Part shown: positions 25,683 to 57,358 of the stretch, piece by piece
How the letters are laid out: each line of letters starts with the position of its first letter
Numbering within the stretch: the stretch's first letter is position 1
NCBI RefSeq assembly: GCF_004768465.1
Contig: NZ_SRMF01000012.1
Coordinates: 1 to 64,000, forward strand
Length of the DNA: 64,000 nucleotides
Reading direction: 5' to 3'
From: Natronospirillum operosum
Lineage (GTDB): Bacteria; Pseudomonadota; Gammaproteobacteria; Pseudomonadales; Natronospirillaceae
The notes under the pieces: generated by a model
The model's database searches: none
The model's input: only the letters and a program-made list of their open reading frames with translations
What the model was told of the DNA's origin: nothing
Made by a program: the position numbers and the translations under genes

Positions 25683-26704
25683 GGCTGTGCCTCCCGTAGC
25701 GGACCAAACTGGGCGCGATACTGTTCCATGGTCATGCCCAGCTCGCGCTTGAACAGGCGCCGGAAATGGCTTTCGTCCTGGTACCCCACCTCCAGCGCCA
25801 CGCGAGCCGAGGTCAGCTGACTGCTTTCCAGATACTGGCAGGCCCGTTTCAGGCGTTCCTTCTGTAGAAACTTCAGCGGCGACAGCCCGGTGGCCTGCTG
25901 AAAACGACGCACCAGCTGGCGTGTGCTGATGCTGAGCTCGGCCGCCATCTGCTCCAGGCTGACCGTCTGATGCAGTGATTCCCGCAGTCGGGTCATGGCC
26001 GCCCGCACCAGATCATCCGCATGGGCCTGCACATCATCCGTGACACTGTAGACCGGTGGCGGCGTCGGTGTCGGGTCGACCAGCATCATCCTGGCGCTGG
26101 TCAGGGCCAGCTGTCGACTGCCGTAGCGTTCCGCCAGATGCAGCACCAGATGATGTGCCGTCTGGGCACCGCCGGTGGTACAGATGATGCGCCCATAGTC
26201 GGCCAGCACCGAACGCGTATCGGTGCGCACGCCCGGGAACAGTTGCCGAAAGTTGGCTTCACTGCGCCAGTGCATCAGCGCCGGCGAATGACTGAACAGG
26301 CCCGCCCGGGCCAGCAGGAAGGAACCGGTACAGCAGCTTCCCACCAGGCCACCGCGTCGATAATGCTCTGCCACTCCGTCCACCATGGGGCTGAGCTGCT
26401 CCAGTACCGCCTCAATCTTCGTCTGGCTGGAGATGGCGTCATACACCGAAGGTACCACCCAGAGCTGGTCCGATACCGGTGCGCTGCGATCTGCCAGCGC
26501 CTCTGCCAGCGAACAGTCGGCCGGCAGGGGCACACCATTGAAGGGCAGGACGGGCTGGCCGTCGACCGATACCGTCTTCCACTCGAACAGTGGCGCCCGC
26601 CCGGCTGCCTTGATATGACAGTAGTTCACGGTGATCAGGGCATCAATCAGGCTGACCGGCAGCGAGCCCAGGCAACGGTCGGTCAACAGTATCATCAGCT
26701 TCAT
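25679..26704 (-). CDS. GlxA-like AraC regulator (DJ-1/PfpI + HTH)
   Basis: The 341-residue protein joins an N-terminal DJ-1/PfpI-like domain (about 1-190, with the nucleophile-elbow-like GSCCTGSFLLARAG) to a C-terminal AraC DNA-binding domain (about 235-335; SLEQMAAELSISTRQLVRRF and VALEVGYQDESHFRRLFKRE). Such regulators respond to small amines or related metabolites. A 246-bp piece of this gene reappears, about 95% identical by eye, at 29976-30222. The gene is divergent from the hydrolase gene at 26807. Confidence 0.85.
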   Translation of the reverse strand: MKLMILLTDRCLGSLPVSLIDALITVNYCHIKAAGRAPLFEWKTVSVDGQPVLPFNGVPLPADCSLAEALADRSAPVSDQLWVVPSVYDAISSQTKIEAVLEQLSPMVDGVAEHYRRGGLVGSCCTGSFLLARAGLFSHSPALMHWRSEANFRQLFPGVRTDTRSVLADYGRIICTTGGAQTAHHLVLHLAERYGSRQLALTSARMMLVDPTPTPPPVYSVTDDVQAHADDLVRAAMTRLRESLHQTVSLEQMAAELSISTRQLVRRFQQATGLSPLKFLQKERLKRACQYLESSQLTSARVALEVGYQDESHFRRLFKRELGMTMEQYRAQFGPLREAQP

Positions 26705-31379: not shown

Positions 31380-32150
31380 TTAGCCGTACAACACTGCAAA
31401 TTCCCCGGGACTGAAACCTGAAAAGGACCTGAACTCGCGATTGAAATGCGACTGATCGTAGTAGCCGGCAGTCATTGCCAACTCCGTCATCGACGCCACC
31501 TGTGGCAACAGATCCACTGCATTCCCGAAGCGGACAATGCGCGCATACAGCTTGGGCAGAAAGCCGGTGTGCTGGCGGAATACCCGTTCGAACTGTCTCA
31601 CCGACAAGCCATAACGGACGCTCAGTTCCGCCAGCGTGACATTGCCATGCCGAGCCCTGATGTACCTTTCGGCGTCAGCGGCCAGCGCATGCCCGGGCCT
31701 GAGGCCAATCAGTCGCTGCTCGAAATGACGGCGCAGCAGACCTACGCGCTGGCAGGTGCTCGTCGTCTGCGACAGCCTATCCAGCAGCTCATTCAGGTTG
31801 GTCCAGGGCAGGTCGGACAGTTCCAGAATATGTTCACTGAGTTCACCGGCCGGCATCCTGAACAGCAACGGCACCGCCTGCGGGTACAGCCCCACGCCAA
31901 TCATTTCATTACACTGTGGGGTCGATGTGAACCGATCCGGCTGCCGGGTCTGGCCCTGCAAGCCGGAGAACACGACGTCGGTTGAACCGGGCCGGGTCTG
32001 AAAGGCGAAGACGATCTTGGTCATGACATCCGCAATGGAGTAATAGACCCCATCACCAACACCCGGATACGGCTGCTGCTGGCTGACCGACCAGAAACCA
32101 TCGACAAACCCTGCCAGCAGCGGCCCGGGTTCATACACCGCTTCTTCCAT
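31380..32150 (-). CDS. AraC-family regulator
   Basis: A 256-residue regulator with an N-terminal sensing part (about 1-150; EPGPLLAGFVDGFWSV, as in the DUF6597 type) and a C-terminal AraC HTH (about 160-250; VTLAELSVRYGLSVRQFERV and LAMTAGYYDQSHFNREFRSF). It precedes the hydrolase gene at 31283 by about 96 bp on the same strand, and probably controls it. Confidence 0.83.
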   Translation of the reverse strand: MEEAVYEPGPLLAGFVDGFWSVSQQQPYPGVGDGVYYSIADVMTKIVFAFQTRPGSTDVVFSGLQGQTRQPDRFTSTPQCNEMIGVGLYPQAVPLLFRMPAGELSEHILELSDLPWTNLNELLDRLSQTTSTCQRVGLLRRHFEQRLIGLRPGHALAADAERYIRARHGNVTLAELSVRYGLSVRQFERVFRQHTGFLPKLYARIVRFGNAVDLLPQVASMTELAMTAGYYDQSHFNREFRSFSGFSPGEFAVLYG

Positions 32151-35613: not shown

Positions 35614-36307
35614 GATGATCCTTCCTGTCGGTGTTTGCCAAAGACACCCTTATTGTCTGCAGGTCCTGCCCGCAGCGATAGAACGTTGCCGACACATTTC
35701 TCCATTCACTGGGGGTGCACCCGGTGTGCTTGCGACATTCGCGGATATAGTGCGACTGATCGGCATAGTCACCGGTCGGCACATGCTCTGACGCGGCCAG
35801 ATCCCGGGCCAGCTGACGGGCCAGCCGCAACTGCCTGCTGACGGCGCCCGGTGTCTGCCCGGCGTAACGCCTGCACAGGCGCTCCGCCTGGCGCTCCTGG
35901 CCGCTGTCGCCGGGCCTGAATCGCTGCCGGACCAGCAAGGACCACAGTTCGGTGAACTGATATTCATCATGGGTCATGGTGACTGCAGCGCGCAGATCCT
36001 CCAGCAGCGCCAACCAGGCCGACGGTGAACTGTCCTGAAAGACGGCCAGCAACGACAGCTCAGCGGGCGAAAAACTGCGGTTCAGGAAATAGCGCGGATG
36101 GCCGAGCAAGGCCTTGATAAAGGCTGGTGCAGCAAACAGTACCGACACAGATCCTTCCGGCTGCAGACAGTGCACCCGGCTGTGCGGCCCGAACAGCCGC
36201 ACCGTTCCCGCTGCCCTCACGAGCGTGGCAAAGGGCGTGGGCAACAGCGCCAGCGGACCCGACCCGTGGGTCACCAGGCGCGCAGCAAAATGATTTCTAT
36301 CCGACAT
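35537..36307 (-). CDS. AraC-type HTH regulator
   Basis: A 256-residue protein with a partly recognisable AraC C-terminal half (LRLARQLARDL, then GDYADQSHYIRECRKHTGCTPSEW, about 165-210). The N-terminal half is an unassigned sensing domain (VRLFGPHSRVHCLQPEGSVSV). The tail (RKDHHGTWTQGD onward) is read through the start of the next gene, and an earlier natural end is possible. Adjacent DUF4287 and NAD(P)-binding genes are on the same strand. Confidence 0.7.
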   Translation of the reverse strand: MSDRNHFAARLVTHGSGPLALLPTPFATLVRAAGTVRLFGPHSRVHCLQPEGSVSVLFAAPAFIKALLGHPRYFLNRSFSPAELSLLAVFQDSSPSAWLALLEDLRAAVTMTHDEYQFTELWSLLVRQRFRPGDSGQERQAERLCRRYAGQTPGAVSRQLRLARQLARDLAASEHVPTGDYADQSHYIRECRKHTGCTPSEWRNVSATFYRCGQDLQTIRVSLANTDRKDHHGTWTQGDGRSHCRQSENENRQDAG

Positions 36308-37041: not shown

Positions 37042-37851
37042 TCAGGGCAGTGCCAGGTCCAGATCATGACCACACAGCAGTTGAGCGGCAGAGTGCCTGC
37101 AATCGCCCGGCGTCAGGCCGCCGAATCGTCTGAAGTCACGAATGAAATGGGACTGGTCAGCATAGCCGCTGGCAAAGGCTATCTCGGTCAGAGGACGCTC
37201 GGTTTCACGCTGAATCACGTGCAGCGCCGACTGGAAACGAAGGATGCGGGCAAACAGCTTGGGTGGCACACCGACCTGCTGCCTGAACCGGCGCTGAAAC
37301 TGCCGTTCCGACATCTGCAGGGTCTGCGTCAGTGCCATAACAGGCAGGCAACCCTGGCTCTGAACAAACATGCGGATGCTGCTTTCCACGGCACAGTCCC
37401 GGTCCGGCGACTGCCTCTGTTGTCGGGTCAGAAAATGGGTCAGAAGCCCCATCACAGCCGCCGCAGTCGGTGCATTCAACAGTTGGTCGACCAGGCTCCC
37501 CGCCAGTGGCTCGAGGTCCCATATCTGATCAGTGCACTCCCGCGCATCCACTCCCAGCAGCATGGTCAGCCCGTGCGGAAAGAGATTGATGCCGAACAGC
37601 CGGTCCGCATTCTGCAGGTACAACCGACCCGGCCCAGTGGACTGCCCATAGACAAAAAGGTGAGGCAGCCTCTGCGGTGCCAGGGACGGCCGGGCATACG
37701 CCACCGCGCCGCGATGAAACATGATGCCGGGGCAGCCATCCGCCACTATGTTGTAATGCCTGGCTGACGATCCGGCCGGCACTTCCAGAGTCCAGAAGAA
37801 CCGGACCAGATGCCGCAGTGCAGCCGGCGCTGTGTACTCCCGATAGTGCAT
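37042..37851 (-). CDS. AraC-family regulator
   Basis: The 269-residue protein has an N-terminal domain starting MHYREYTAPAALRHLVRFFW (DUF6597-like, about 1-140) and a C-terminal AraC HTH (LTQTLQMSERQFQRRFRQQV and IAFASGYADQSHFIRDFRRF, about 165-255). GGAGG precedes the ATG at 37851. It probably controls the NAD(P)-binding gene after it. It is the fourth AraC-type gene between 25.7 and 37.9 kb. Confidence 0.83.
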   Translation of the reverse strand: MHYREYTAPAALRHLVRFFWTLEVPAGSSARHYNIVADGCPGIMFHRGAVAYARPSLAPQRLPHLFVYGQSTGPGRLYLQNADRLFGINLFPHGLTMLLGVDARECTDQIWDLEPLAGSLVDQLLNAPTAAAVMGLLTHFLTRQQRQSPDRDCAVESSIRMFVQSQGCLPVMALTQTLQMSERQFQRRFRQQVGVPPKLFARILRFQSALHVIQRETERPLTEIAFASGYADQSHFIRDFRRFGGLTPGDCRHSAAQLLCGHDLDLALP

Positions 37852-50297: not shown

Positions 50298-51245
50298 CTA
50301 CAGCAAACCGATCTCGCGCAGGCGCTCTTGCAGGAACTCATGGGCCGTAATCGGGGCATACCGCTGCGGGTTGTCCGCGCTCACACACTGCGGCAGTACG
50401 CTCAGGTCCATATCCGGATTGGGATGCAGAAAGAACGGCACCGAGTAGCGGCTGACTCTGGCCGCCGGGCCGGTGGGGTTGACCACCCGATGGGTGGTGC
50501 TGGGCAGCAGGCCATTGGTCAGTCGCTGCAGAATGTCGCCGATATTGACCACTATGGTGCCGGGCAGCAGGGACACCGGCACCCAGTCGCCCTGCCGGCT
50601 CTGGATCTCGAGCCCGGACTGGCGCGAGCCGACCAGCAGGGTAATCAGATTGATGTCTTCATGCGCGGCGGCACGCAGACTGCCGGCCGGAGGCTCGTCA
50701 GGCAGCGGCGGATAATGCAGCACGCGCAGTATGCTGTTGCCCTGGTCGGTACGGGCAGCAAACCAGTCCGCTGGCAAGTCCAGATAGCGGGCCAGCGCCT
50801 GCAGTAGCTGCTGCCCCACACGCTCCAGTTCGGCATAGAGCGTCAGCGCCGCCGCTCTGAAGGCCGGCTGCTCCTGCGGCCAGATATTGGGTTGCAGCTG
50901 CGCGTAGCGGGGCGCCGCCAGTTCGCGCCCGACATGCCAGAATTCTTTCAGATCGTGCACCGCCGCCCCCTTCGCCACCTCGCGCGCAAAGGGCGTATAG
51001 CCCCGGGCGCCGCCCGGGCTGCCGGCATACTGCAGCTTGGTGGCTGCGGGCAGGGCAAACAGGGCTTCCGCAGCATCCAGGGCATGCTCGATCACTGCGT
51101 CCGGCACACCGTGCTGCTGCACCCCCACAAACCCCCATTGCCGATAGGCCCGACCCAGGCATCGGGCAAACTCGTCCGGCTGCCGGGCCTGCTCACGCAG
51201 ATCGAACACGGGAATGGTGTGCTCTGGCGCTGCGGTTTCACTCAT
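50298..51245 (-). CDS. isopenicillin-N-synthase-like 2OG-Fe(II) oxygenase
   Basis: A 315-residue enzyme of the 2-oxoglutarate/Fe(II) family: IPVFDLREQARQPDEFARCL start, iron ligands His/Asp in AAHEDINLITLL (near 192) and His in STTHRVVNP (near 248), and the R-x-S pair in ARVSRYSVPFF. The substrate is unknown. It is 17 bp downstream of the amidohydrolase gene on the same strand and probably co-transcribed with it. Confidence 0.85.
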   Translation of the reverse strand: MSETAAPEHTIPVFDLREQARQPDEFARCLGRAYRQWGFVGVQQHGVPDAVIEHALDAAEALFALPAATKLQYAGSPGGARGYTPFAREVAKGAAVHDLKEFWHVGRELAAPRYAQLQPNIWPQEQPAFRAAALTLYAELERVGQQLLQALARYLDLPADWFAARTDQGNSILRVLHYPPLPDEPPAGSLRAAAHEDINLITLLVGSRQSGLEIQSRQGDWVPVSLLPGTIVVNIGDILQRLTNGLLPSTTHRVVNPTGPAARVSRYSVPFFLHPNPDMDLSVLPQCVSADNPQRYAPITAHEFLQERLREIGLL

Positions 51246-51262: not shown

Positions 51263-52423
51263 TCAGTCGGGCCAGCGGCGCACCACGCCGCCACTGATCA
51301 CCCCCAGCACCTCATGGTGCTCCGACCACAGCACCAGATCGGCGTCGGCCCCGGCCTCCAGACGCCCCTTGCGCGGCAGACCCAGGGTCTCGGCCGGGTT
51401 CAGCGATACGGTACGCAGCAATGTCTCAAAGCTCAGCCCCACATCACGCACACCGCGCTGCACCGCATCCGCCAGGCTGTCCAGGCGCCCCATGCCAACG
51501 CGCAGAAAACGGCCTTCGGCATCGAATTCGGGCAGGCTGGCATAGGCATCGCTGGACAATGTGATGCGATCACCCGGCACGCCGGCGGCCAGCGCTTCGG
51601 CAACTGCCAGCGGACTGTCCACATCCCCGGCCGCCAGCAGGCCTGCATTGGTGGTGGCGGTAAAGTCGATGGTGCCGCCTTCGCGGGCAAAGCGACAACC
51701 CTGCTGCAACAGGTCTCGGGTGCGGTTGATATGGGTGGGGTAGAAGTGCGACAGGCGCACCGGATAGTTCTCGGCCGCCTCGAACAGCACATTCAGCCCG
51801 GCGTCATGATCCCCCACATGGATACTCAGTACACCCTGCTTGCCGCCCAGCATGGCGCCTACGCGCACCTCTGAAGCCAGACGGGCCAGTTCGGCGGCAC
51901 TGGGATGGCTGCCCCGATGATCGGCAATGGCGACTTCGCCGACGCCGATGACCTCCGGAATCCAGGCCAGATCGGTCTGTACCGAGCCGGTCAGGGTACG
52001 GATGGGCAGATGATAGTTGCCGGCATAGATATGGGCCGACACCCCGGCGGTGGCGAGCAGGCGGGCATGGGCCAGCAGTTCGGTGTGACTGCGCTGCACC
52101 GCATCCGTGCCCAGGGCGCCGGTCACCGTGGTCACCCCACTGAGCCAGGCATCTTCGGGTGGCATGGCCGGCATGCGCGAGCCATAGCCTCCTTCGCCGC
52201 CACCGCCAGTGATATGGGTCAGGGTATCGACCAGTCCGGGGCTGACCACGGCGCCCTGTGCATCCATTTCGTGCAGGCCGGGCAGGCCGGTGATCTCAAT
52301 TGAGGCATCCACGGCCAGAATGCGGCCTTCCACCATCAGCAGATCACGCAGGCCGAGGGGCCGGGGGGCATAAACCCGGGCGTTGCGTAGCAACAACGGG
52401 GGATTGGCGGACTGAGGGGTCAT
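51263..52423 (-). CDS. isoaspartyl-dipeptidase-like amidohydrolase, altered metal site
   Basis: A 386-residue protein of the IadA group: [19 protein letters not shown] (65-79), [53 protein letters not shown] and SSDAYAS. Compared with E. coli IadA as I remember it, the first ligand of the HxH pair (His68) is Leu68 and the carboxylated Lys162 is Glu163. The remaining His and Asp ligands are present. So the metal centre should differ. AGAGGAC lies before the ATG at 52423. Role in isoaspartyl peptide turnover is inference. Confidence 0.78.
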
Positions 52424-52775
52424 GGTGTCCTCTGCTGAAGTGCTGTGCAGTCTGCTTGACGGGCATCGTCGGCTCGGGCGTATTCTTGACGCCATTGCCT
52501 GCAAATTTGTGGCAAAATGCTCTGGCGCCGATCTTGCTTCGGATCGGGTTCGGGCAATCGCTGCGCTCTTACCTTACCAGAGCACGATCAGAGCCAATAC
52601 CGGGACCGGTTTGGCTTTGCGAACAGATGCTTTGGTTTTGCGACAGCAGAATTGCAATGGTCAGTGCCATGATGCTTTAGTGTGCGTCAAACTGGCACAA
52701 CAACAACTGCCGGCCTCGCGAGGCAGCGCGATCCAGAGGCTGCGAGCCGGCACCGCAACAGATTCGGGAGTCATC
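52424..52775. other. 352-bp gap: divergent promoter region
   Basis: The gap between the divergent amidohydrolase and ABC genes has no credible gene; open frames here lack ribosome sites and are extensions of the ABC ATPase frame. It holds the repeated TTTGCGAACA/TTTGCGACA site (52616-52655) and a GGGAG ribosome site for the gene at 52776. Confidence 0.6.
52616..52655 (+). promoter_or_regulatory. repeat operator before ABC ATPase gene
   Basis: TTTGCGAACA at 52616-52625 and TTTGCGACA at 52637-52645 start 21 bp apart, with AATTGC at 52650-52655. The same three elements with identical spacing occur at 54459-54498. Two helical turns between direct repeats suits a dimeric regulator acting on both transcripts. 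Confidence 0.65.
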
Positions 52776-53546
52776 ATGTCTGACGCACACCCACCGCTGG
52801 TGGTTCAGGATATCCATAAATCTTTCGGCGACACCGAGGTCTTGAAGGGTATCTCCATCACTGCCCACAAAGGTGATGTGATTTCCATGATCGGCTCATC
52901 AGGCTCCGGCAAGAGCACCTTTCTGCGTTGCATCAATCTGCTGGAGATTCCCAACCAGGGCGAGATCCGGGTCCATGGTGAAGAGATTCTGTTTCGCGGC
53001 GACGGGCATGACCGGCGCCCGGTGGATGCCAAACAGGTACAGCGCATCCGGGCCCGCCTGTCCATGGTATTCCAGAGTTTCAATCTGTGGTCGCACATGA
53101 CCGCGCTGCAGAATGTCATTGAAGCCCCGATACAGGTGCTGGGCCTGAAGCGGGATGAGGCCATTGCACGAGGTGAGGCCCTGCTGCGCAAGGTCGGCCT
53201 CTATGAACGCAAGGACGCCTACCCGGCACAGATGTCCGGGGGCCAGCAGCAGCGTGCCGCCATTGCCCGCGCCCTGGCCATGGAGCCGGAGGTGCTGCTG
53301 TTCGACGAGCCCACCTCGGCACTGGACCCGGAACTGGTCGGTGAGGTCCTGCAGGTCATGCGTGACCTGGCCCGCGAAGGTCGTACCATGGTCGTGGTCA
53401 CCCATGAGATGGGCTTTGCGCGTGACGTGTCCAGTCAGGTATTGTTCCTGCATCAGGGTCGGCTGGAAGAACAGGGCGAGCCGAAGGAGCTGTTTGGCAA
53501 CCCCAAATCCGAACGCCTGCGCGCCTTTCTGAAACCCAAGTACTGA
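52776..53546 (+). CDS. polar amino-acid ABC transporter ATPase
   Basis: The 256-residue ABC ATPase has Walker [27 protein letters not shown], signature MSGGQQQR, Walker [12 protein letters not shown] and [11 protein letters not shown]. These are typical of the HisP/ArtP/GlnQ group that imports polar amino acids. The ATG at 52776 with GGGAG upstream is the start. A binding-protein gene follows by 11 bp; the permeases come at 55.6 kb. Confidence 0.92.
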
Positions 53547-53557
53547 GCTTCCGCCCC

Positions 53558-54355
53558 ATGACCGACAAGAGCCGCTACATAGCGCCCCTGATCGTCTTCT
53601 CGCTGGCCATTGCCGCGTCCCTGTTCGTGCTTGACCTGTACCGGGTCGAGCCACAGGACCGCACCATCCGCATGGCCGTGGATGTGCCCTATGAACCCTT
53701 CGAATACTATGATTCCGATGGCAATCTGACCGGCTTCGAGATCGAGCTGGGTGAGGCCGTCTGCGAGGAAATGGGGCTGTACTGTCAGTGGGTCGTGCAG
53801 GCCTGGGACGACATCATTCCCGGCCTGCTGGACCGCCGTTACGAAGTCATCTTTTCGTCCATGAGCATTACACCGGACCGCGCCGAGCGCGTGCTGTTCT
53901 CGGCCCCCTACTACACCACCCCCAGCGGCTGGTTTGCCCGTCAGGATGCCGGTTTCGATCCGCAGAGTCCGGCTTCCATGGTCGGTCTGCGGGTCGGGGT
54001 ACAGCGCGGCACCATTCAGGACGACTATGTCACCGACTATCTGGAAGGCATTGATGTGCGCCGCTTCAGCACTGCGGATGACATCGTACTGGATCTCGAA
54101 GGCGGTCGACTGGATGCCATCTTTCTGGACTTCCCGGTCGGTGAGCAGACCATTCTGGGCCGCCCGGGCTATGCCGTCATTGGCGAGCCGGTCAACGAGC
54201 CGCGCCACATTTTCGGGGACGGTGTAGGCGCTGCCTTTCACCCGGACGAACAGGAACTGGCCGAAACCTTCAATGAAGGCCTGCGCCGGGTTAAGGAAAA
54301 TGGCACCTATGAGGCCATCATGAACAACTACTTTGCTTATGACATCATGATCTGA
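53558..54355 (+). CDS. ABC substrate-binding protein, possibly membrane-anchored
   Basis: A 265-residue polar-amino-acid binding protein: RTIRMAVDVPYEPFEYYDSD, FEIELGEAVCEEMG, FSSMSITPDRAERV, RVGVQRGTI and IMNNYFAYD. The N-terminus (about 8-26) is hydrophobic but has no clear signal-peptidase site and is followed by charged residues, so it may remain as a membrane anchor. It is one of two binding proteins for the same locus; the second (54818) has a normal signal. Confidence 0.82.
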   Translation: MTDKSRYIAPLIVFSLAIAASLFVLDLYRVEPQDRTIRMAVDVPYEPFEYYDSDGNLTGFEIELGEAVCEEMGLYCQWVVQAWDDIIPGLLDRRYEVIFSSMSITPDRAERVLFSAPYYTTPSGWFARQDAGFDPQSPASMVGLRVGVQRGTIQDDYVTDYLEGIDVRRFSTADDIVLDLEGGRLDAIFLDFPVGEQTILGRPGYAVIGEPVNEPRHIFGDGVGAAFHPDEQELAETFNEGLRRVKENGTYEAIMNNYFAYDIMI

Positions 54356-54817
54356 TGCGCAGTTGTGGCGCAGTGCCCTGCAGCCCGCGCCACATCAGTG
54401 CATGCGGACTTCAATGGAGGTTCATCAATACCCCGACGGCGCCAGGCAACGGTTTTGTTTTGCGAACAAATACTTGTTTTTTGCGACAGATCAATTGCTT
54501 TGGTGACAATGCTGGGGTGATATTGACTCTACAATAACAATGACCAGAGCATGGCACAGGCGGTCAGAAAGCCCACTGCATCTGGTGTTGCGCCAGAGTA
54601 GTGCAGTTGATACTGGCCTTCCAGCCTGCGAATCCGACCGGTCAGGTCCGGACTACCCAGAGATTCAGCCAGGTATTGTTTTTGCGACAGGCACTGTTCT
54701 TGCTGACTGGTCCCTGCACCGTCAGTCCACTGGCAGCACGCCCATTCTGGGGCAGCCGGTCAGCATGGTTGAGTGAACGGAAGGTAAAACCAAACCGATA
54801 ACAACGGAGACGCAACA
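54356..54817. other. 462-bp gap with promoter region
   Basis: No credible gene: the short frames at 54540-54801 lack ribosome sites. The gap holds the second repeat operator (54459-54498), a third single TTTGCGACA at 54681-54689, and an AACGGAGACG ribosome region before the next gene. Confidence 0.6.
54459..54498 (+). promoter_or_regulatory. second copy of the repeat operator
   Basis: TTTGCGAACA (54459-54468), TTTGCGACA (54480-54488) and AATTGC (54493-54498) repeat the arrangement at 52616-52655 base for base in spacing (0, 21 and 34). A lone TTTGCGACA follows at 54681-54689. It lies upstream of the second binding-protein gene. Confidence 0.65.
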
Positions 54818-55540
54818 ATGAAAAAACTGACACTTGCAATGGGCGTACTGGCACTGGGTGCCAATATAGCCCTGGCAGACGTGGTACGCATGGGTTCGGA
54901 GGGCGCTTACCCTCCCTACAACTTCATCAATGATGACAATGAGCTGGACGGCTTCGAGCGTGAACTGGGTGACGAACTGTGCCGCCGCGCCAACCTGACC
55001 TGTGAATGGGTCATCAACGACTGGGATACCATCATCCCCAACCTGGTCGCCGGCAACTACGACACCATCATGGCCGGCATGTCCATCACTGACGCGCGCA
55101 AGGAAGTGATTTCCTTCACGCAGGATTACCTGCCCAATGATCCGTCTGCCTACATGGCTCTGGCCGGTACACCGACAGACGTGATCGATAACGGCATCAT
55201 CGTGACCCAGTCCAATACCATTCAGGCTGGCTATGTTGCCGAGACCGACGCTGACCTGATCGAGTACCCGACTCCGGATGAAACCATCTCTGCAGTGCGC
55301 AACGGCGAAGCCGACGCGGTACTGGCGGACAAGGAATTCCTGGAAGCCTATGTACGTGATTCCGGTGGTGAACTGGTGCTGATCGCCGAGATCACTCTCG
55401 GTGGCGGCATCGGCATGGGTGTGCGTCAGTCCGACAACGAACTGCGTGAAACCTTCGACGCGATCATCGCTGAAATGAAGGAAGACGGTTCGCTGAACGA
55501 GCTGATCGTCAAGTGGTTCAACGAAGACCTGACTTACTGA
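54818..55540 (+). CDS. polar amino-acid ABC substrate-binding protein
   Basis: The 240-residue protein has a signal peptide (about 1-20, ALA-DVV) and the family-3 solute-binding layout: VRMGSEGAYPPYNFINDD, FERELGDELCRRANL, YDTIMAGMSITDARKEVISF, GVRQSDNELRETFD. A Cys pair (Cys near 60 and 67) should form a disulfide. It likely supplies polar amino acids to the permeases that follow, across a hairpin. Confidence 0.9.
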   Translation: MKKLTLAMGVLALGANIALADVVRMGSEGAYPPYNFINDDNELDGFERELGDELCRRANLTCEWVINDWDTIIPNLVAGNYDTIMAGMSITDARKEVISFTQDYLPNDPSAYMALAGTPTDVIDNGIIVTQSNTIQAGYVAETDADLIEYPTPDETISAVRNGEADAVLADKEFLEAYVRDSGGELVLIAEITLGGGIGMGVRQSDNELRETFDAIIAEMKEDGSLNELIVKWFNEDLTY

Positions 55541-55561
55541 ACCACGACCAATCTGTAAAAT

Positions 55562-55582
55562 GACGGGGCCCCTGGCCCCGTC
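55562..55582 (+). terminator. terminator-like hairpin after binding-protein gene
   Basis: GACGGGGCC, loop CCT and GGCCCCGTC make a 9-bp stem followed by TTTC. It lies 22 bp after the stop and 20 bp before the permease start, so it probably attenuates transcription into the permease genes. Confidence 0.75.
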
Positions 55583-55601
55583 TTTCTACCGGCACTGACT
55601 T

Positions 55602-56510
55602 ATGTTTTCGTTCTGTACCGATCCATCCATACTGCCCACCTGGCAGTGGTATGCCTGCTACCTGACTTCCGGTACGCACCAGGCTTTCTACTGGTCTTTC
55701 GGGGTGGTCATCCTGCTGCTGTTGCTGGCCGCCCCCATGGCCCTGCTGTTCGGCTTTGGCGGCGCCCTGGCCATGCGCTCCCGCTTTCTGCCGCTGAACC
55801 TGTTGGGGAAAGGCTATACCGCACTGGTACGCGGCGTGCCTGACATCGTATTTTTCCTGTTTATCCCCATTGCGATCGGTCAGGGTATCGAATTTCTGCT
55901 GCATCACATCAACTGCCCGGACTGGGATCAACCGCTCCGACAGGGCAACGACTTCCGGGTCTGTGCCGATGCCCGCGTGCCTCCGCGTGGGTCGCCAGCC
56001 TGGGTCTACAATGTGTACGGGTTTATCCTGGCGCTGATCGCCTTTGCCATAGTATTTGGCGCCTTTGTCGCCAACACCCTGTATGGGGCCATGCGCGCCG
56101 TACCCAGAGGCCAGATTGAAACCGCCGAAGCCTACGGCATGACACCCAGAAAGACCTTCATGCGCATCATCCTGCCGCAGATGTGGATCTTTGCCCTGCC
56201 GGGGCTGTCCAATATCTGGATGATCCTGACCAAGGCCACGCCGCTGCTGTTTCTGCTCGGCATTCAGGACATTGTCTACTGGGCACGCGAACTCGGGGGC
56301 CAGAAAACCTCACTGTACAAGTACCCGCACCCGGACTGGCGAGTCTGGTACTTCCTGGTGGTGCTGGTGTTCTATCTCTGCATTACCGCGCTGAGCGAAC
56401 GCTTCTTTGATCACATGATGAATCGACTGAGTATCGGCCAGGCCACCTCCGGTGGTGACCGTTTGCGGCCGAAAGGCAAGAAGAAAGCGAAAGCGGAGGC
56501 GCCCGCATGA
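55602..56510 (+). CDS. polar amino-acid ABC permease 1 (HisQ-type)
   Basis: A 302-residue membrane protein with about five hydrophobic segments, the early LGKGYTALVRGVPDIVFFLF, and the EAA loop QIETAEAYGMTPRKTFMRIILPQ, which docks on the ATPase. The loop between segments 2 and 3 is longer than usual (about residues 95-145, with Cys). Its end overlaps the next permease by ATGA, and it has a Lys-rich C-terminal tail. Confidence 0.9.
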   Translation: MFSFCTDPSILPTWQWYACYLTSGTHQAFYWSFGVVILLLLLAAPMALLFGFGGALAMRSRFLPLNLLGKGYTALVRGVPDIVFFLFIPIAIGQGIEFLLHHINCPDWDQPLRQGNDFRVCADARVPPRGSPAWVYNVYGFILALIAFAIVFGAFVANTLYGAMRAVPRGQIETAEAYGMTPRKTFMRIILPQMWIFALPGLSNIWMILTKATPLLFLLGIQDIVYWARELGGQKTSLYKYPHPDWRVWYFLVVLVFYLCITALSERFFDHMMNRLSIGQATSGGDRLRPKGKKKAKAEAPA

Positions 56511-57358
56511 GAACCTGTGCCGAAAGTTTTCAGGGTTACATCCTGCGCTCTCTGGGCCGCGACTACGGTGAGCGACTGCTGCCGCGCGGCCTCGACATCA
56601 CCTACTGCGACCAGCTGTTCCTGATCGGTTCCGGCATGATCTGGAACATCTACTTCGCCTTTATGGCTGTGGTGCTGGCGTTTTCTCTGGCCACGCTACT
56701 GGCGTTGGGCAAGTTCAGCAACAACCTGTTCCTGCGCAAGCCCGCGAGCTGGTTTATCTTTCTGTTCCGCGGTTCACCGTTGTTTATCCAGTTCTTTTTC
56801 TTCTATTCGCTGTTTGTGCTGCTGCCGCGTCAGGGCATCGAGATCAACCTGCTGTTCACCACCATTACCGCCGATACCGGGGCCTTGCGCACCGCAACAG
56901 TGGGTGGGCTGGTAGTATTGACGCTGAACACGGCGGCCTATACCGCAGAACTGTTCTATGGCGCCCTGCGGTCCATTCCCAAGGGCGATCTGGAGGCGGC
57001 GGATGCCTATGGCCTGAGCGGGTTCACCAAGTTTCGGCGCATTGTCTGGCCAACCATGATGCGTCTGGCCTGGCCGTCATACACCAATGAGGTGATCTTC
57101 CTGTTCCACTCCACCACCCTGGTCTTTCTGTCGGCCTTCCCGGCCCGACAGCAGTCCGGTGAGGCGCTGTACTATGCGCGCTACTTTGTGGATCAGACCT
57201 TCAACCCGTTCGTGTCCTTCCCCATAGTGGCGGGTTACTTCATTGTTGCGACGCTGCTGATCATCTGGCTGTTTTCATGGGGCAACCGCTACCTGAATCG
57301 CCATCTGCCGCAGGCCATGCGCCCACGCATTCGCTTCAAGCCACAGTATCTGCGCTGA
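56507..57358 (+). CDS. polar amino-acid ABC permease 2 (HisM-type)
   Basis: A 283-residue membrane protein with about five segments; FLFRGSPLFIQFFFFYSLF is the typical start of the domain and DLEAADAYGLSGFTKFRRIV is the ATPase-contact loop. It pairs with permease 1. It is the last gene of the operon and is followed by a terminator. Confidence 0.92.
   Translation: MRTCAESFQGYILRSLGRDYGERLLPRGLDITYCDQLFLIGSGMIWNIYFAFMAVVLAFSLATLLALGKFSNNLFLRKPASWFIFLFRGSPLFIQFFFFYSLFVLLPRQGIEINLLFTTITADTGALRTATVGGLVVLTLNTAAYTAELFYGALRSIPKGDLEAADAYGLSGFTKFRRIVWPTMMRLAWPSYTNEVIFLFHSTTLVFLSAFPARQQSGEALYYARYFVDQTFNPFVSFPIVAGYFIVATLLIIWLFSWGNRYLNRHLPQAMRPRIRFKPQYLR

What the first reader, a model, noticed from the sequence alone, without database searches (positions are those of the whole stretch)
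52616..54689. Exactly spaced direct-repeat operator in two promoters of one transport locus
TTTGCGAACA, TTTGCGACA and AATTGC recur at offsets 0, 21 and 34 upstream of the ABC ATPase gene and again before the second binding-protein gene, while the sequence around them differs. A third single TTTGCGACA is at 54681. This defines a probable regulon motif for a regulator not encoded in the window.
Basis: seen in the sequence. Interest (0 to 1): 0.65.

Follow-up and report, generated by a model that had tools for sequence, protein, structure and literature searches.

The report
Twin arginine-regulator switches, one transporter locus
Two copies of a DNA switch that most likely binds ArgR, an arginine-sensing regulator known from Pseudomonas, stand before two parts of one amino-acid uptake locus; the kind of switch is known, but one copy seems to serve a transporter piece acquired from other bacteria.

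Summary
In detail: TTTGCGAACA, TTTGCGACA and AATTGC recur at offsets 0/21/34 before the ATPase gene (52616) and the second binding-protein gene (54459); shuffles give none. On the other strand each is a tandem of half-sites TGTCGC… and GTTCGC… 21 bp apart, the layout of the ARG box of the AraC-type ArgR of Pseudomonas. The genome, probably Natronospirillum, encodes such an ArgR beside its arginine-succinyltransferase genes on another contig. A matrix from astC boxes of other genera ranks the two operators 1 and 2 of 127,928 positions, the second with a modest score. A sister genome keeps both. One ATPase-first operon in each of five Pseudomonas-type genomes carries the same reverse-oriented pair: 5 of 12 ATPase-first upstreams, 0 of 16 others. 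Exact sites occur nowhere else in the two genomes of the genus. AATTGC is more likely a -35 element; the third copy (54681) is not conserved. Most likely arginine-loaded ArgR activates both promoters. The kind is known; unusual is a second operator inside the operon, before a permease module that looks acquired. Neither binding nor expression was tested.

The parts
52609..52645 (-). Operator A: tandem ARG-box-like half-sites TGTCGCAAAACCAAAG (52630-52645) and GTTCGCAAAGCCAAAC (52609-52624), 21 bp apart, reverse oriented relative to the transporter genes
52652..52657 (+).
   Evidence: AATTGC conserved in the sister species and in register with the SBP2 promoter; no consensus sigma-70 promoter is scored here
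52676..52681 (+). Candidate -10 (TTTAGT, 18-bp spacer, TGn before it)
   Evidence: TGATGCTTTAGTG conserved between the species; inferred
54452..54488 (-). Operator B: tandem half-sites TGTCGCAAAAAACAAG (54473-54488) and GTTCGCAAAACAAAAC (54452-54467), 21 bp apart, same orientation as operator A
54495..54500 (+). Candidate -35 (TTGCTT) of the internal promoter before SBP2
   Evidence: conserved and in register; inferred
54519..54524 (+). Candidate -10 (GATATT, 18-bp spacer)
   Evidence: in register with TTTAGT of the ATPase promoter; inferred
54674..54689 (-).
   Evidence: ranks 2 of 127,970 as a lone 16-mer with the family matrix; not conserved in the sister species
52776..53546 (+). ABC ATPase of the HisP/AotP kind
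   Evidence: below the equivalog cut-off
53558..54355 (+). SBP1, Lys/Arg/Orn-type binding protein
   Evidence: below the cut-off
54818..55540 (+). SBP2, His/Arg/opine-type binding protein, first gene of the module shared mainly with Alphaproteobacteria
   Evidence: below the cut-off
55602..56510 (+). permease (ArtQ/HisQ-like)
56507..57358 (+). permease (HisM-like)
51263..52423 (-). iadA, isoaspartyl (beta-aspartyl) dipeptidase, divergent from the transporter
   Evidence: TIGR01975 355.2 bits, cut-off 331.25; adjacent to an argR-like gene in 12 of 16 genomes with iadA over the cut-off
50298..51245 (-). 2-oxoglutarate/Fe(II) oxygenase following iadA, kept beside iadA in L069/G001 and G007

Best explanation
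Each repeat is an operator for the AraC/XylS-family arginine regulator ArgR (GATase1-like AraC subfamily), encoded elsewhere in the genome beside the arginine-succinyltransferase (ast/aru) genes. Two ArgR subunits would bind the two 16-bp half-sites, 21 bp (two helical turns) apart. The footprint would lie at about -79 to -43, just upstream of a weak -35 (TTGC..) with a -10 18 bp further on. In this reverse, class-I-like arrangement, arginine-loaded ArgR would recruit RNA polymerase to two promoters: one for ATPase-SBP1 and an internal one for SBP2 and the two permeases. The locus would then take up arginine, related cationic amino acids or beta-aspartyl dipeptides when arginine is available. 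Shown by sequence: motif, spacing, conservation in one sister species, match to astC-promoter boxes, presence of the regulator gene, and a like reverse pair at one ATPase-first operon in each of five Pseudomonas-type genomes. Inferred: binding, activation, effector, transcription starts and substrate.
For: Published ARG box: TGTCGCN6GNAA in tandem with 5 bp between, the second repeat weaker (PMC10963909 passages); related CdhR: GGTCGC half-sites with a 15-bp spacer, said to be very similar to those of GbdR, SouR and ArgR (PMC5806209 passages). ArgR-like AraC protein directly upstream of astC-aruF-aruG-astD-astB in G000; orthologue in G001, 85%. TGTCGC is the most enriched 6-mer upstream of astC in 13 genomes outside the window's genus and the four Pseudomonas-type ones: 10 of 13 forward, 3 of 13 reverse, shuffle mean 0.70. 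TAnnnT stands exactly 37 bp downstream in 22 of 31 boxes. A matrix from 11 of those boxes ranks operators A and B 1 and 2 of 127,928 tandem positions (25.1, 13.2; next 7.2); with 200 column-permuted matrices both are never in the top 2. Both operators are kept in the sister species in diverged DNA and are the top two (18.2, 17.2; next 11.2) of that 19-kb locus. Reverse GCGACA-N15-GCGACA stands before one ATPase-first operon in each of five Pseudomonas-type genomes: 5 of 12 ATPase-first upstreams, 0 of 16 others, 0 of 5000 shuffles of those five. P. alloputida's aotP-artJ operon, of that gene order, is reported as positively regulated by ArgR (passage). iadA, divergent from the transporter here, lies next to an argR-like gene in 12 of 16 genomes.
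Against: The GNAA end of the published box is not exact (AAAG, CAAG). With a matrix from five Pseudomonas boxes only, operator A ranks first (9.66) but narrowly: an overlapping place on the other strand scores 9.43, another place 8.97, and operator B is not in the top five. Operator B's 13.2 is not exceptional by itself: at other gaps the window's best chance scores reach 13.5, 13.1 and 12.9, and a place in L149 reaches 12.7. Boxes at astC and aotJ are forward, the operators reverse. Seven of 12 ATPase-first upstreams lack the exact pair, among them the two nearest by ATPase in the same family (L265, L266; 71% and 70%; L265 has one reverse GCGACA); three of the five that have it are near-copies of each other. 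The same genome has GbdR, a related regulator with TGTCGC sites upstream of its own gene. The ArgR of this genus sits on a long branch, outside the clade of the other argR genes of the family. The G007 operator has only one clear half-site. No sigma-70 consensus promoter was scored.
Confidence: 0.77

Rival explanations
1. The same kind of operator, but bound by another GATase1-like AraC regulator of this genome: GbdR (glycine betaine, contig C29) or the C1:1377 kb protein, so that the locus answers to another compound.
For: The GbdR-like protein has a similar HTH and lies beside gbcA/gbcB- and dehydrogenase-like genes (named by eye); TGTCGC recurs upstream of its gene and is partly conserved in G001; relatives of this subfamily have similar sites.
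Against: The transporter is of the Lys/Arg/Orn/His kind; iadA is adjacent to an argR-like gene in 12 of 16 genomes; boxes at argR-linked astC promoters rank the operators on top; the one GbdR half-site quoted reads GCCGC.
Confidence: 0.13
2. ArgR binds but represses: the reverse orientation marks negative control.
For: ArgR of Pseudomonas also represses (argG); the operator orientation is opposite to that at astC and aotJ.
Against: The operator sits upstream of the putative -35, not on it; five operons with a like reverse pair have the gene order of one reported as positively regulated; reverse sites at about -50 to -70 are the usual class I activating layout for MarA (PMC6900184 passages, which also report exceptions).
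Confidence: 0.13
3. No operator: the similarity is left over from duplication of one promoter, kept by chance.
For: The two promoters are alike in register outside the motifs too, 29 of 64 against 17.0 (sd 3.4).
Against: The motifs are the best conserved parts between two species whose flanking DNA has diverged; independent match to boxes at other genes and in other genera.
Confidence: 0.04

Closest known systems
aotP-artJ-PP_0281-PP_0280 arginine transporter operon of Pseudomonas alloputida KT2440, positively regulated by ArgR (PMC10963909, passage)
   Same: Gene order ATPase-SBP-permease-permease as reported; one ATPase-first operon in each of five Pseudomonas-type genomes searched here carries a reverse tandem GCGACA-N15-GCGACA
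   Different: Here the distal half-site reads TTCGC; a second binding protein and two unlike permeases follow, with their own second operator.
ARG boxes of aotJQMOP-argR and aruC (Pseudomonas ArgR; gene names recalled)
   Same: TGTCGC core; published tandem 21-bp period with a weaker second half-site
   Different: Those boxes are forward, with TAnnnT at +37; these are reverse and lie further upstream
CdhR/GbdR/SouR operators of P. aeruginosa (PMC5806209, passages)
   Same: CdhR: direct repeats of GGTCGC with 15 bp between; the paper calls the other sites very similar
   Different: Other regulators and ligands (carnitine and glycine betaine; SouR's ligand not looked up)

Membership tests
ARG box of AraC-type ArgR | TGTCGC core in the better-conserved half-site | tested here: met
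   exact at 52640-52645 and 54483-54488 on the minus strand
ARG box of AraC-type ArgR | GNAA at the far end of the 16-bp half-site | tested here: inconclusive
   AAAG and CAAG here; astC boxes of relatives vary at these positions (GTAA, GAAA, AAAC)
ARG box of AraC-type ArgR | tandem direct repeat with 5 bp between half-sites (21-bp period) | tested here: met
   among gaps 16-26 both operators are the top two only at 21, though the best chance scores at gaps 18, 20 and 26 (13.1, 13.5, 12.9) match operator B's 13.2
ARG box of AraC-type ArgR | second repeat weaker than the first | tested here: met
   GTTCGC against TGTCGC in all four operators of two species
ARG box of AraC-type ArgR | an ArgR of this type encoded in the genome, beside arginine genes | tested here: met
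   C28:6294-7283, upstream of astC-aruF-aruG-astD-astB; AraC HTH 86.5 bits, no Pfam DJ-1 match at E <= 0.01
ARG box of AraC-type ArgR | orientation and place as at known ArgR targets | tested here: inconclusive
   reverse as at 5 of 12 ATPase-first operons, which are inferred, not proven, ArgR targets; opposite to astC and aotJ
ARG box of AraC-type ArgR | binding and arginine-dependent regulation | not testable with these tools
   needs EMSA and reporter assays
GbdR operator | half-site as at the one GbdR distal half-site quoted (GCCGC) | tested here: inconclusive
   GTCGC and TTCGC in both operators; one quoted site does not define the family, and the GbdR site of this genus is unknown

The most novel reading that the evidence does not exclude
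When this lineage placed a horizontally acquired SBP2-permease-permease module behind its own ATPase-SBP1 genes, an ArgR operator and its promoter were copied in front of it, so that one regulator drives two promoters of a chimeric operon. With iadA (linked to argR in relatives) on the divergent side, the locus would be an ArgR-controlled salvage system for beta-aspartyl-arginine from cyanophycin.
Probability: 0.3. Interest if true: 0.55.

Novelty: new member of a known kind. Interest (0 to 1): 0.36.

Why it matters
It assigns an unnamed motif to a known kind of regulator, extends the ARG box to a lineage outside Pseudomonas, and separates two operator layouts (forward at astC and aotJ, reverse at some ATPase-first transporters) that direct tests could compare. 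It is also a compact case of an operator standing at the joint with an apparently acquired transporter module, and it ties an isoaspartyl dipeptidase to arginine genes.

Tried and rejected
Rejected: that the motif is genome-wide. One search found three exact hits for the shorter pattern; the third lies inside a short ribosomal-protein frame before the S13 gene, read by eye as rpmJ. Counts with up to 3 mismatches do not stand out from the reversed-pattern controls (264 against 332; 58 against 59 and 64 against 52). Rejected: that a regulator in the window is the obvious candidate. The window holds four AraC-type HTH matches, one of them GATase-like by eye (25.7 kb), but the ArgR query found only the C28 and C29 proteins at E <= 1e-30 in G000. 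Weakly tested: alphaproteobacterial relatives as the source of the operator. A scan of the 49 loci for TGTCGC pairs (one mismatch in one copy, offsets 20-22) listed seven pairs in L069, L070, L072, L077, L078 and L112, none of which I judged to be the operator pair; but that scan also missed the sister's two operators, whose distal half-site has two mismatches, so it cannot exclude weak ones. With the matrix, L077 and L078 gave tandem maxima of 7.3 and 9.7; the other alphaproteobacterial loci were not scanned with it. Tried without result: DJ-1/PfpI search for the regulator (one search missed ArgR); cyanophycinase in G000 (no match; G001 has two sub-cut-off matches); tandem boxes in G007 (only one clear half-site); P. 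aeruginosa ArgR, GbdR or OruR in the main text of one binding-site atlas (no occurrence); promoter and terminator consensus (none). One paper search for iadA-type enzymes together with ArgR and succinyltransferase terms listed 10 of 12 papers, none of them on that link by title and abstract start; this is no proof that the link is unpublished. Structure prediction was not used.

Mended on checking: I had first written that five of five operons of the same gene order carry the reverse pair. A recount, gives 5 of 12 ATPase-first upstreams (one in each of five Pseudomonas-type genomes). The seven without it are L265, L266, L267, L273, L276, L282 and L285; in L276, L282 and L285 the stop-free frame of the ATPase runs on to 682-686 aa, so a promoter may not lie there. 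The confidence was lowered from 0.8 to 0.77 and one membership row set to inconclusive for this reason.

Full report
What was claimed, and whether it is there. The three words and their offsets are exactly as described. TTTGCGACA occurs exactly three times in the 64-kb window, all in this locus. As one composite pattern with up to three mismatches it occurs twice, and never in 100 shuffles. The two copies stand between iadA and the ATPase gene, and between SBP1 and SBP2.

What it is. On the minus strand each copy reads TGTCGC-N15-GTTCGC, two half-sites 21 bp apart. A Pseudomonas paper gives the ARG box of ArgR, an AraC/XylS-family regulator, as TGTCGCN6GNAA in tandem with a 5-bp separation, i.e. 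a 21-bp period, the second copy generally being weaker (passages). A paper on the related regulator CdhR gives GGTCGC half-sites with a 15-bp spacer and calls them very similar to those of GbdR, SouR and ArgR (passages). That is the family resemblance to be tested.

Is there an ArgR? The genome (4.34 Mb, 32 contigs) has 36 AraC-type matches. One of them, C28:6294-7283, lies directly upstream of astC, two arginine N-succinyltransferase subunits, astD and astB (gene names by eye and by tblastn). A second one of the same subfamily lies beside glycine-betaine genes and is GbdR-like. The sister genome G001 has orthologues of both.

Does the ArgR box of this group look like the operator? In 250 bp upstream of astC from 13 genomes outside the window's genus and the four Pseudomonas-type ones, TGTCGC is the most enriched hexamer: 10 of 13 in forward orientation, 3 of 13 in reverse, shuffle mean 0.70. 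One genome (L205) has neither TGTCGC nor GGTCGC forward. Over the 19 astC upstreams and four aotJ upstreams 31 boxes were listed; 22 have TAnnnT exactly 37 bp downstream (one box for each of 18 astC and each of four aotJ upstreams), and the other nine do not. Some of these genomes are close relatives, so the counts are not independent. A matrix from 11 astC boxes ranks operators A and B first and second among 127,928 tandem positions of the window (25.1 and 13.2, next 7.2); none of 200 column-permuted matrices puts both in the top two. Operator A stands out clearly. Operator B's score taken alone does not: at other gaps chance places in the window reach 13.5, 13.1 and 12.9, and one in L149 reaches 12.7. 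A matrix from five Pseudomonas boxes alone is weaker still: operator A first, but narrowly, and B outside the top five.

Conservation. In the sister species (L069, Natronospirillum sp.; permease 85% identical) both operators are kept in the same places while the flanks have drifted, and they are the two best tandem places of that 19-kb locus. In register, all four promoters share CGGT, TTGCGAACA, TGCGACAG, AATTGC and a TA.TG block. AATTGC with the hexamer 18 bp downstream (TTTAGT, GATATT, GTTATT) fits a weak -35/-10 pair, so I read AATTGC as promoter, not operator; a consensus scan reports no promoter there. The lone 54681 copy is not kept. With exact letters the tandem occurs only at these two places in each genome.

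Orientation. Boxes at astC and aotJ point towards the gene; those here point away. This was the strongest objection, so it was tested. Ten genomes were searched for the window's ATPase and 28 upstream regions of 400 bp were examined. In 12 of them the ATPase gene comes first, followed by a binding protein. Five of these 12, one in each of five Pseudomonas-type genomes, carry an exact reverse GCGACA-N15-GCGACA pair 133-170 bp before the gene. The other seven do not, nor do the 16 other regions, nor any of 5000 shuffles of the five sequences. Against the reading: the two nearest by ATPase in the window's family, L265 and L266, lack the pair (L265 has one reverse GCGACA), and three of the five with the pair are near-copies (184, 155 and 151 identical of about 190), so there are about three independent cases. 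The published P. alloputida operon aotP-artJ-PP_0281-PP_0280, of this gene order, is positively regulated by ArgR (passage); that the five operons correspond to it is inferred. In the AraC family, MarA sites at about -50 to -70 are usually reversed and those overlapping -35 forward, with exceptions (passages), which gives a mechanical reason for two orientations. With transcription starting about 7 bases after the -10, the operators lie at about -79 to -43 (inference).

Neighbourhood. iadA over the family cut-off was found in 16 of 57 genomes. In 12 of them an argR-like gene is adjacent, and in 7 of those 12 ast genes follow within the fetched stretch; in G011 the longest reading frames of iadA and argR overlap by 26 bases, their true starts being unknown. 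In one (G029) no such regulator was found in 15 kb, and in G000, G001 and G007 iadA is divergent from an ATPase-SBP1 transporter. G007 has the same iadA, oxygenase, ATPase (79%) and SBP1 (62%) but different permeases (31-33%), and one reversed TTTGCGACAG in the intergenic stretch (rank 8 of 31,972 as a single box). By contrast SBP2 and the permeases of the window are closest to L069/G001, then G014 and Alphaproteobacteria such as Roseinatronobacter, and at about 60% SAR11 relatives. So the window's operon looks like a native ATPase-SBP1 pair with an imported SBP2-permease-permease module, and the second operator stands at the joint. No tree of these transporter genes was built. The two promoters are alike beyond the motifs (29 of 64 positions against 17.0, sd 3.4), as expected from a duplication or from shared constraint.

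Function. The transporter belongs to the Lys/Arg/Orn/His kind. IadA-type enzymes are promiscuous and hydrolyse beta-Asp-Arg from cyanophycin (passages); no cyanophycinase was found in G000, so salvage of such dipeptides is a guess.

Verdict. A real, conserved operator of a known kind. That it is an operator of the ARG-box type is very likely on sequence grounds; that ArgR is the protein is likely (about 0.77); activation by arginine is likely but rests on analogy.

Noticed in passing
window 52776-57358; L069, L233, L149: The operon looks chimeric: ATPase and SBP1 resemble G007 (79%, 62%), while SBP2 and both permeases resemble G014 and Alphaproteobacteria; G007 has other permeases at that place.
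   Followed up: partly
L201, L202, L191, L224-L231, L234: iadA lies next to an argR-like gene in 12 of 16 genomes with iadA over the cut-off, in G011 within a GDPD-iadA-argR-ast cluster; in G000 a GDPD-argR-ast cluster has no iadA.
   Followed up: partly
L150, L190, L196, L199-L205, L186-L189, L224-L234: ARG boxes at astC and aotJ hold a fixed distance to the putative -10: TAnnnT at +37 from TGTCGC/GGTCGC in 22 of 31 boxes, none at +33 to +36 or +38 to +45.
   Followed up: yes
L065 4271, 4300, 4331: Three forward TGTCGC copies 29 and 31 bp apart upstream of the GbdR-like gene, partly kept in G001.
   Followed up: no
window 50298-51245: A 2-oxoglutarate/Fe(II) oxygenase of unknown substrate stays beside iadA in G000, L069/G001 and G007.
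   Followed up: no
L078 11734-16486: In Roseinatronobacter the related transporter is followed by two glutamine-synthetase-like genes, an amidotransferase-like gene and an FAD oxidoreductase, read by eye as a gamma-glutamyl-polyamine pathway.
   Followed up: no
window 25709-25948, 31398-31619, 35696-35896, 37096-37329: Four AraC-family HTH matches on the minus strand within 12 kb, one with a GATase-like N-terminus by eye.
   Followed up: no
L150 6294-7283; L196; L190: The ArgR of this genus and of G007 forms its own long-branch clade although it keeps the place beside astC; the G000 protein has no Pfam DJ-1 match.
   Followed up: no
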